Shown here: one piece after another, positions 381 through 20,065 of the stretch
How the letters are laid out: each line of letters opens with the position of its first letter
Position numbering within the stretch: position 1 is the first letter of the stretch
IMG/VR virus record: IMGVR_UViG_3300048834_000160
Span: 1-20,065 of that record
Length of the DNA: 20,065 bases
Direction: 5' to 3' (one strand)
Origin: a virus
Made by a program: the position numbers and the translations under genes
Notes under the pieces: generated by a model
What the model saw: the letters and a program-made list of their open reading frames with translations, nothing else
Databases searched by the model: none
Told to the model about the DNA's origin: nothing

Positions 381-389
381 GTTCCGCAA

Positions 390-431
390 TGGAGGTGAGG
401 GGAGTCGAACCCCTGACCTCTTCCATGCCAT
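390..431 (-). tRNA. 3' half of tRNA-Ala(GGC): prophage attachment-site scar
   Basis: The minus strand reads as the 3' half of a tRNA. It has an anticodon loop ATGGCAT (425-431, anticodon GGC with T33 and A37), a 3' anticodon stem GGAAG (420-424), a variable loop AGGTC (415-419), a T arm AGGGG-TTCGACT-CCCCT (398-414), an acceptor strand CACCTCC (391-397) and a discriminator A (390). The segment through the anticodon loop and variable loop (ATGGCAT..AAGAGGTC) is what E. coli tRNA-Ala(GGC) carries. The 5' half is missing. The bases before the loop (GCTGGC) do not pair with GGAAG, and no GGAGGTG acceptor 5' strand is found upstream. This is the classic scar left when a tyrosine integrase recombines at a tRNA anticodon loop, with the phage supplying a replacement 3' half at the other end. 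CCA is not encoded. Confidence 0.75.
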
Positions 432-495
432 GCCAGCCTTCTCTGGATCAGTCCCGTGAGCCGGTTTCTGCGGTGATCGGGGGATGCCTGCCAAC

Positions 496-16552: not shown

Positions 16553-17077
16553 TCACCAGGTGATGGCGGCGGCGTCCTCGATCGACTCGGCCAGCTGGGC
16601 CTGGGCACGCTTGGCGGCCCGCACGTCAAACAGGGCCTTGAGCGCCAGACCGTAGCCGACCAGCAGGGCCCGCAGCTGGGCGATGGTCAGCGTGTGGGCC
16701 ACGCCCGCGGCATCCACGATCACCTGCTGGGTGGCGTCGTTGACCAGGCCCATTTCCTGGGCCTCGCGCAGCAGCGTCGCCTGGCGGGTGAAGGCGTTCT
16801 GATCGGTTTCAGCGGCCGCCAGGGTGATCTGGCTGCCCTGGGGCGTGATGCCCGCGGCGATTGCGGCGTCGTAGCCGGCCTGCACGCGGGCCACGGCGGC
16901 GGCCCGTGCTTCATGCAGCGGCCAAGCGTCTACCACGGCCTGCGCGGCGGCTCGCTGCTCCGGCGTGGCGTCAACGCGGTAGTCGATGCGATAGGTGCCG
17001 TCGTTCAGCTTCGCCACCCCGTCGATGGGGCAGACTGCAAGGATCGCGGCGTTGAGCTTCGAAGTGCTCATGCTCAT
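16553..17077 (-). CDS. DUF4376-like tail-fibre-associated protein
   Basis: 174 residues from the ATG at 17077, which overlaps the fibre stop (ATGA); a longer reading to 17119 is unlikely. Residues 1-70 (SKLNAAILAVCPIDGVAKLN with GTYRIDYRVDATPEQRAAAQ) are a small alpha/beta unit. The C-terminal part fits the DUF4376 pattern: a long Ala-rich helix (EARAAAVARVQAGYDAAIAA), NAFTRQATLLREAQEMGLVN (helix), VIVDAAGVAHTLTIAQLRAL (turn, D..G..H.LT) and AESIEDAAAITW. DUF4376 proteins are linked with tail fibre genes and may be chaperones or accessory baseplate pieces. Immediately downstream of the fibre gene, as expected. Confidence 0.7.
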   Translation of the reverse strand: MSMSTSKLNAAILAVCPIDGVAKLNDGTYRIDYRVDATPEQRAAAQAVVDAWPLHEARAAAVARVQAGYDAAIAAGITPQGSQITLAAAETDQNAFTRQATLLREAQEMGLVNDATQQVIVDAAGVAHTLTIAQLRALLVGYGLALKALFDVRAAKRAQAQLAESIEDAAAITW

Positions 17078-18246
17078 CCCCACACCGTCACGTACAAGCC
17101 GCTCTGGACCTCGGACCAACCAACGTCACCGTAGAAGTCCGAGCTTCCGGTTTTCAGATTTTCGACGCCCGTGACGTAGTGCAGGCCCACGCCGACATAG
17201 CCGCGGTACGCCGCCACCGCCGGGCCCACCGATGTGCCGTTCCACCACCCGCTTACCCCGGAAAACCCGGTGGTGGTGTCGACGCCCACGCCGACCACCG
17301 CGTTGCCGGTCGCTCCCGGGTTCTGGCAGTTGAGCGCTGAGACTTCCTGCTCGTTGTCGGTCTGCACGAACGTGGCCCGGAAGGTGCTGCTGTTGTTTGC
17401 CGCCCGCCAGGTGTTGCTGTTGTAGGACCAGGAATTCGTGTTGTCGCCGATGAAGCAGGGACGCTGCACCCGGTTGTACTTGTTGCAGAGAAACCGCCGG
17501 GCCTCGGTGCCGCCGCTGCCCACGCCGCCGGCGGTGTCGCAGGTCTTGACGGTGCCGCTGTCGTCAAAGGTGTAGAACGTGCCCAGCAGCCGCCGCGTCG
17601 CGTCGCCGCTCTTGACGGCCACGCCGTCCTGCGTCGTGATCGCCGTGGCCCGCGTCGTGTCGTCGGTCCAGACCAGGGCCTCGATCGCGGCGGCCCCGCT
17701 GCTGAGGTAGGCGAAAACATCATAGGGCTTGCCTGCCGTCAGCCCGGTGGTGCTCAGGCTCAGCTCGGCGAACGCCACCACCTGCCAGCTGTAGCCGTTC
17801 CAAAGGGCGATGCGGTTGCCCTGGTAAGGGGTGAAATACACCGTCGTGGCGGCCGTCACGTCGCTGGTGGTCACCGGCGTGCCGCTGGTCAGCGTCAGGC
17901 GGCCCTGGCAGATGCTCACGTCGGGCAGGGCTTGAGCCGCCGACGTCACCAGGGCCACCAGCTTCGTGCCGGCCGACCAACTCACAGCGCTGCCGCTGTT
18001 GCTGCTGGCCAGGATCACGTCGCGGCTCAGCGTCGTGCCGCTGGCCGTGTAGGTGCCGGCGAACACTTCCCAGTCGCCCGTCGGGGCGCCGTCGCCGTCC
18101 ACCGCCCAGGCGCTGAACGTGCCCGTCTGGCCGTCGGCCATGGTGCCGATGCTGCGGTAGCCGGTCGCCGCCGAGCCGAGCGTAAGCGTGCCCGTGCCCG
18201 TCGTCGTGGTGGCGTTCATGCAGCGATCGAGAGCGACCTGGCTCAT
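17074..18246 (-). CDS. Tail fibre / receptor-binding protein
   Basis: 390 residues, ATG at 18246 overlapping the upstream stop by four bases. The N-terminal part (1-105) has a widely shared phage fibre pattern: RCMNATTTTGTGTLTLGSAA, AWAVDGDGAPTGDWEVFAGT and YTASGTTLSRDVILASSNSG. Next comes a module (110-250) with GRLTLTSGTPVTTSDVTAAT, YFTPYQGNRIALWNGYSWQV and KPYDVFAYLSSGAAAIEAL, ending ATRRLLGTFYTF. After RRFLCNKYNRVQRPC the C-terminal 120 residues (TNSWSYNSNTWRAANNSSTF, GVGVDTTTGFSGVSGWWNGT) look like a jelly-roll receptor-binding tip. It should trimerise and contact the host surface. No chaperone-cleavage or enzyme motif seen. Confidence 0.8.
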   Translation of the reverse strand: MSQVALDRCMNATTTTGTGTLTLGSAATGYRSIGTMADGQTGTFSAWAVDGDGAPTGDWEVFAGTYTASGTTLSRDVILASSNSGSAVSWSAGTKLVALVTSAAQALPDVSICQGRLTLTSGTPVTTSDVTAATTVYFTPYQGNRIALWNGYSWQVVAFAELSLSTTGLTAGKPYDVFAYLSSGAAAIEALVWTDDTTRATAITTQDGVAVKSGDATRRLLGTFYTFDDSGTVKTCDTAGGVGSGGTEARRFLCNKYNRVQRPCFIGDNTNSWSYNSNTWRAANNSSTFRATFVQTDNEQEVSALNCQNPGATGNAVVGVGVDTTTGFSGVSGWWNGTSVGPAVAAYRGYVGVGLHYVTGVENLKTGSSDFYGDVGWSEVQSGLYVTVWG

Positions 18247-18578
18247 GAGTCAATGTCCATGCAGGCGCCGGCCGTCACCTGGTGCACCACGATGGCGACG
18301 TCGCGGCGGTCGTAGCCACGGCGGATGGCTCGCCGGCAGATCCTGGCGATGGCCCGCTGCAGCCGATGCCAGAGCTCGGGCTCGCGGCAGAACATGCGGC
18401 CGTCGTAGATCCGCTGGCCCTCGATATGCAGCTCATGCACCACTGGTGCCGGCGTGAAACCGCTGCAGCGTGGATTGTTGATCGGGTCGGCCGTGCAGAC
18501 GCGGCAGTCGCCGTGCCCGGGCTGGTCAGGCGGCGGGGTCGTCGGACGGCGAAGCTGGTGCAGGCAGACCGGCTGCAT
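18243..18578 (-). CDS. Hypothetical protein with possible CxxC zinc site
   Basis: 111 residues, ATG at 18578, overlapping the end of the HTH gene by 53 bases; its stop overlaps the fibre start (ATGA). It contains HGDCRVCTADPINNPRC, a C-x2-C-x9-C cluster that may bind metal. A two-strand segment (HELHIEGQRIYDGRMFC) and a basic helix follow (HRLQRAIARICRRAIRRGYD), with DVAIVVHQ at the end. I do not recognise the family. The long overlap suggests the true start may be one of the internal codons, but the coding bias and coupling support the gene. Confidence 0.5.
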   Translation of the reverse strand: MQPVCLHQLRRPTTPPPDQPGHGDCRVCTADPINNPRCSGFTPAPVVHELHIEGQRIYDGRMFCREPELWHRLQRAIARICRRAIRRGYDRRDVAIVVHQVTAGACMDIDS

Positions 18579-18789
18579 CCCGCCGCTCCCAATCAGGCGG
18601 CCATAAGCCGCAGGACCTCAGCTTGCCCCTGGCAATTGCCAACCGCTTGGACACGGCCTGACGGCTGATGCGGTGCCGCTGGGCCAGCTCGCGATGCGTG
18701 CGCCCCTGCTGGTAAGCCTCCAGCAGCAGCTCCACGTTGCCGCGGCCCACCAGGGCTTTGATCAGTCTGGCCTGGTCCGCCTCAGTCAT
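18526..18789 (-). CDS. Small HTH protein, sigma-70 region-4-like
   Basis: 87 residues, ATG at 18789 overlapping the upstream stop (ATGA). After a helix (DQARLIKALVGRGNVELLLE) it contains a typical helix-turn-helix: HRELAQRHRISRQAVSKRLA (residues 32-51), with the sequence of a sigma region 4 / Trp-repressor-like DNA-binding unit, followed by basic IARGKLRSC. The C-terminus is a short Pro/Ala-rich tail. Small sigma-region-4-like proteins (ArpU/RinA-like) switch on late genes in many temperate phages, and this gene lies upstream of all structural genes, so a late-operon activator is plausible. A terminase-like DNA-binding role is an alternative. Confidence 0.62.
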   Translation of the reverse strand: MTEADQARLIKALVGRGNVELLLEAYQQGRTHRELAQRHRISRQAVSKRLAIARGKLRSCGLWPPDWERRDAAGLPAPASPSDDPAA

Positions 18790-19759: not shown

Positions 19760-19848
19760 TCCCCGGTCCAATCATCGGCAGGCACACGCTTAGCCTCCGC
19801 ATCTTCGGCGGCGCCGCGCAGGTCACGCGATGCGTGCCCGCACATCAT
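19756..19848 (-). CDS. 30-codon ORF coupled to the leucine-rich-repeat gene
   Basis: ATG at 19848 overlaps the stop of the upstream gene as ATGA, and an AAAAGG about ten bases earlier is a possible ribosome site. The translation is MMCGHASRDLRGAAEDAEAK then RVPADDWTGD. It is acidic and soluble, and ends 14 bases before the zinc-ribbon start. It may be a small phage peptide or only a coupling leader. Supported by spacing, not by similarity. Confidence 0.35.
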   Translation of the reverse strand: MMCGHASRDLRGAAEDAEAKRVPADDWTGD

Positions 19849-20065
19849 CCAAGCAAGCCTTTTCGGTTTGACTGCTTCTCAAGTTGGCGTTTCACGACAT
19901 CCGACCCGATCACGCCAGCGGGCAGCGTCGAGCCGCCGTACAGCCGCAGGTCCGTCACCTTCGACAGGTCGACGCCAGCGGGCAGCGTCGAGCCGCCGTC
20001 CAGCCGCAGGTCCGTCACCTTCGACAGGTCGACGCCAGCGGGCAGCGTCGAGCCGCCGTACAGCC
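19845..20065 (-). CDS. Leucine-rich-repeat protein, C-terminal end (starts beyond right edge)
   Basis: The open frame enters from the right edge and stops at TGA 19845-19847. It encodes tandem 20-residue units DLSKVTDLRLYGGSTLPAGV, with Y replaced by D in one copy, followed by a basic tail VIGSDVVKRQLEKQSNRKGL then LG. The L..V..L.L....LP pattern is leucine-rich-repeat-like, and each unit should make one strand-turn of a solenoid. Each unit is 60 bp; adjacent copies differ by only one or two bases, so copy number probably varies. Such solenoids usually bind protein or surface ligands. It is not clear whether the gene is phage or accessory cargo; the coupled small ORF after it suggests it belongs to the same operon. 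Confidence 0.7.
   Translation of the reverse strand, partial: LYGGSTLPAGVDLSKVTDLRLDGGSTLPAGVDLSKVTDLRLYGGSTLPAGVIGSDVVKRQLEKQSNRKGLLG
19911..20065. repeat. 60-bp tandem repeat inside the LRR gene
   Basis: Units 19911-19970 and 19971-20030 plus a partial unit 20031-20065 running off the edge. They are identical except for the first base of the 19911 unit and one base at 19940/20000/20060 (a, c, a), which changes Tyr to Asp. Nearly perfect copies indicate recent duplication or gene conversion. Confidence 0.95.

What the first reader, a model, noticed from the sequence alone, without database searches (positions are those of the whole stretch)
19845..20065. Near-identical 60-bp repeats encode a leucine-rich-repeat solenoid in a phage operon
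Three visible copies differ at almost no positions, and one Tyr/Asp change falls at the same place in the unit (LRLY versus LRLD). LRR proteins are rare in phage late regions. Variable copy number could alter binding length, giving phase- or size-variation of a surface or effector protein.
Basis: partly seen in the sequence, partly recalled or inferred. Interest (0 to 1): 0.6.

Follow-up and report, generated by a model that had tools for sequence, protein, structure and literature searches.

The report
Prophage gene ending in LRR-like repeats
The window ends inside a short run of almost identical 60-base repeats that encode the tail end of a coiled, leucine-rich-repeat-like protein in a prophage; it is real, but only a fragment is visible and the proposed length variation cannot be shown.

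Summary
The repeat is real. A 60-bp tandem array (19912-20065, 2.6 copies, 97% matches) fills the end of the contig. It is read on the minus strand as 20-residue units LPAGVDLSKVTDLRL(D/Y)GGST, followed by a 22-residue tail and a stop. The frame has the codon-position GC profile of neighbouring genes. The only close relative found, another IMG/VR contig identical over 12,386 bp except one base, also stops inside the array. The full gene, its N-terminus and its copy number are therefore not recoverable here. AlphaFold2 on the real frame gives an LRR-like solenoid (pLDDT 81, one strand per 20 residues), while a wrong-frame control gives none. No Pfam, NCBIfam or PHROG family claims it, and the canonical LRR Asn/Cys position is Gly. 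Most likely it is the C-terminal binding solenoid of an accessory protein in a prophage inserted at tmRNA, upstream of a small regulator-like gene rather than among the structural genes. Size variation remains untested. Phage LRR proteins are known, so interest is modest.

The parts
19845..20065 (-). 3' part of the repeat gene (N-terminus beyond the contig end), 72 visible codons, stop TGA at 19845-19847
   Evidence: codon-position GC
19912..20065 (-). 60-bp tandem array, 2.6 units of 20 aa
19848..19913 (-). non-repeat C-terminal tail VIGSDVVKRQLEKQSNRKGLLG, mostly predicted helix
20058..20060 (-). Tyr codon at the contig tip; Asp in the other contig (only difference in 12,386 bp)
19998..20000 (-). 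Asp codon at the same unit position
19938..19940 (-). Tyr codon at the same unit position, last unit
   Evidence: same in L002
19355..19741 (-). next gene downstream, 128 aa, CxxC...CxxC zinc-ribbon-like, no family
18526..18789 (-). small HTH protein, weak matches to sigma-70 region 4 and phage antitermination Q
17074..18246 (-). probable tail fibre/spike protein (34% over 54% to a tail spike of Pseudanabaena phage Pam5)
   Evidence: 75% relative in L090

Best explanation
The array encodes the C-terminal part of an LRR-like solenoid in an accessory protein of a prophage. Each 20-residue unit adds one turn with a short strand (x-L-R-L-x); the Leu/Val/Pro residues pack inside, and Asp/Arg/Asp-or-Tyr line one exposed face, which would be a binding surface for a protein or glycan. 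A short, mostly helical tail ends the protein. The units are nearly identical in DNA, so they arose by recent tandem duplication, or are kept alike by recombination. Shown: the repeat, the frame, the phage context. Predicted: the fold. Inferred: binding function and recent duplication. Not shown: copy-number change, secretion, virion location.
For: Array and frame. AlphaFold2 of L002:2-256 without alignment: pLDDT 81.3, pTM 0.66, strands at 11-14, 31-34, 51-54, exactly one per 20 residues, then a helix at 68-82. Control, another open frame of the same DNA: pLDDT 63.9, pTM 0.29, helices only. Most VIA-align 2 rows are LRR proteins (SHOC2, CCR4, lamprey VLR, T. pallidum TpLRR, TLR2, SspH1), Z 2 to 4.7. 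Phage genes on the same strand.
Against: No LRR family matches by sequence, even for an eight-unit repeat of the unit. Foldseek gives no significant hit. Z values below 5 are within what unrelated models give. The consensus Asn/Cys position is Gly. The AlphaFold model used a single repetitive sequence. The N-terminus is unseen.
Confidence: 0.6

Rival explanations
1. Variable-length or hypervariable receptor: unit number and the Asp/Tyr residues on the exposed face change between phages to alter binding.
For: Every difference seen between units or contigs (three in all) is GAC/TAC, is non-synonymous, and lies at one of the two positions flanking the L-R-L strand. The only base that differs between two contigs over 12,386 bp lies in the array.
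Against: Three differences only, and two of them lie within about 35 bases of a contig tip, where assemblers err. Copy number is not measured in any genome.
Confidence: 0.15
2. The array is a different beta-solenoid (for example hexapeptide- or ice-binding-like), not an LRR.
For: No LRR profile match; NosD, ice-binding and hexapeptide proteins also appear among weak Foldseek rows.
Against: One strand per 20 residues and the V-x-x-L-x-L-x-x-G-x-x-L spacing fit LRRs better; LRRs dominate the structural re-alignment.
Confidence: 0.15
3. The last copies are an assembly artefact at a contig end and the true gene has fewer or different units.
For: Both contigs stop inside the array and disagree at the tip.
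Against: Two contigs agree on about two and a half units joined to unique downstream DNA.
Confidence: 0.1

Closest known systems
LRR-like tandem gene family in a 206-kb IMG/VR contig (L105/L122, IMGVR_UViG_3300036770_006296)
   Same: Virus-contig-encoded 20-residue units with LPxGV at the same phase (e.g. TLPPGVEFKNGGDVYLRSLK), two to eight units per protein, short C-terminal tail.
   Different: Asn 9, Gly 11 and Leu 18 of that unit are absent here; its profile does not recognise the window array (best domain 1.9 bits; 28 of 5000 shuffled repeats score as well), and it was found by a pattern that pre-selected the shared positions. Analogy, not shown homology.
Bacterial-class LRRs of type III effectors (YopM, SspH1, IpaH), PMC5976695
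   Same: 20-residue unit, Leu-Pro in the unit, solenoid with one strand per unit; some LRR effectors are phage-encoded (GogB, PMC3386239; SspH1 from general knowledge).
   Different: One Leu-Pro, not two; no Asn in the conserved segment; no secretion signal or effector domain visible.
LRR-like protein in the tail module of vibriophage P. lipares (PMC10945359)
   Same: Phage protein with an LRR-like segment, reported as diverse in its population.
   Different: Authors give only 10% HHpred probability; different host; sequences not compared here.
FNIP/FGxxFN LRRs of giant viruses (PMC9525666)
   Same: Viral repeat solenoids with regular units; FNIP proteins appear among weak viral fold hits.
   Different: 22-residue FNQ-containing consensus, absent here.

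Membership tests
Leucine-rich repeat (LRR) | Tandem units of 20-30 residues | tested here: met
   20-residue units, about 2.6 in the window and about 3.2 in L002
Leucine-rich repeat (LRR) | Hydrophobic positions of the conserved segment LxxLxLxx(N/C)(x/-)L (definition from PMC5976695) | tested here: met
   VTDLRLDGGSTL: V1, L4, L6, L12
Leucine-rich repeat (LRR) | Asn/Thr/Ser/Cys at position 9 of the conserved segment | tested here: not met
   Gly in every unit
Leucine-rich repeat (LRR) | Match to a curated LRR profile | tested here: not met
   No LRR family in Pfam or NCBIfam; none for an eight-unit synthetic repeat in Pfam
Leucine-rich repeat (LRR) | Solenoid with parallel sheet, one short strand per unit | tested here: inconclusive
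   Predicted with pLDDT 81 from one sequence; weak but mostly LRR structural matches
Bacterial-class LRR (YopM/SspH type) | Two Leu-Pro motifs in the variable segment, xxLPxLPxx or xxLPxxLPxx | tested here: not met
   Single LP per unit
20-residue phage LRR-like family of L122 | Recognised by the profile of its units | tested here: not met
   i-Evalue 43; 28 of 5000 shuffles as good

The most novel reading that the evidence does not exclude
A prophage receptor or effector whose LRR-like binding face is diversified by unit gain and loss and by Asp/Tyr switching at the two exposed positions beside each strand.
Probability: 0.1. Interest if true: 0.65.

Novelty: new variant of a known kind. Interest (0 to 1): 0.25.

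Why it matters
If the array really varies, it would be a simple way for a temperate phage to retune a binding surface. As it stands, it adds one more LRR-like phage protein with a unit not covered by current family models.

Tried and rejected
Relatives in phage and plasmid records: none in phages; one plasmid hit (Cupriavidus, FNRLNGG repeats) judged unrelated by its different motif. A degenerate DNA pattern in viral contigs gave two chance hits with a stop inside. A genome-contig scan with a pattern widened by synthetic rows found none; those rows only widened the search and are not evidence. A second genome scan with the flanking host-like gene to name the host found none, so the host is unknown; genome relatives cannot be drawn for a virus record. 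A related fibre-bearing contig (L090) has no detectable repeat. The pairwise BLAST E of 1e-7 to L105 was not used as proof of homology, because L105 was selected by a pattern fixing the same residues, and the profile test failed. Foldseek gave no significant hit in PDB or BFVD.

Full report
What is there. The window is a 20,065-bp IMG/VR virus record. Its last 154 bases are a 60-bp tandem array. On the minus strand, in the direction of the main phage genes, it encodes 20-residue units and then a unique 22-residue tail and a stop. Only this frame has the GC profile by codon position of the neighbouring genes; a plus-strand frame has the same GC3 but an unusual second position.

Only one close relative was found. 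IMG/VR contig 3300048930_000197 (L002/L005) matches the window over 12,386 bp with a single mismatch. It also ends inside the array, 38 bases further on, as expected when assemblers meet repeats longer than their k-mers. The single mismatch is the outermost D/Y codon, 6 bp from the window's end. The observed variation is thus three GAC/TAC differences: two between units of L002 and one between the contigs, all at the two positions flanking L-R-L. This is suggestive, but too few and, for two of them, too near contig tips to argue diversification.

Fold. AlphaFold2 on the 85 visible residues of L002, from one sequence, gives one strand per unit with mean pLDDT 81. A different open frame of the same DNA gives a poor helical model. 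VIA-align 2 aligns the model mostly to LRR proteins, but with Z of 4.7 or less, and Foldseek finds nothing significant. The conserved-segment definition in PMC5976695 is met at its hydrophobic positions and not at position 9 (Gly). I therefore call it LRR-like, not an LRR family member.

Context. The phage has TerL, portal, HK97-type capsid and tape-measure genes. The left end carries the 3' end of a tmRNA on the minus strand (below the gathering score) followed by a non-phage-looking gene, which suggests a prophage inserted at ssrA; this is an inference. The repeat gene lies upstream of a small HTH protein with weak Q/sigma-region-4 matches and of the fibre genes, so it looks like an accessory gene near the start of the late block rather than a structural gene with known role.

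Comparison. A spacing-only pattern scan of viral contigs found 23 stretches, most of them chance or unrelated. One, in a 206-kb contig, belongs to a tandem cluster of about nine genes with 20-residue LPxGV-type units, several with clearly repeated units. It shows that viral contigs carry such proteins with different unit numbers, but its profile does not recognise the window array. Published phage and viral LRR proteins exist (PMC10945359, whose reference list holds a paper on LRRs in double-stranded DNA viruses that I could not read; PMC9525666).

Verdict. A real repeat and a likely LRR-like solenoid, seen only in part. The proposed phase or size variation is untested.

Noticed in passing
window 387-455, minus strand: 3' end of a tmRNA (T-arm and acceptor end...AGGGGTTCGACTCCCCTCACCTCCA) just past the last phage genes, followed by a terminator-like hairpin and a coiled-coil gene (1-207): probable prophage attachment site at ssrA with host flank (below gathering score).
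   Followed up: partly
L122 (G002:C1:77300-81900): Tandem cluster of about nine paralogous short genes in a 206-kb viral contig, with a shared N-terminus (MTREEFIEILEEKGYSYEI...), a variable number of 20-residue LPPGVEFKNGGDVYLRSL units and a shared C-terminus (WEGNIEGIDSKRLLNLMIKRGLFI); no Pfam or PHROG match for one member.
   Followed up: partly
L090: Viral contig with a fibre gene 75% identical to window 17074-18246 and a 47% relative of the next gene, but none of the other window genes tested matched: fibre module shared between otherwise different phages.
   Followed up: no
window 16553-17119, minus strand: Weak DUF4376 / tail-fibre PHROG match beside the fibre gene.
   Followed up: no
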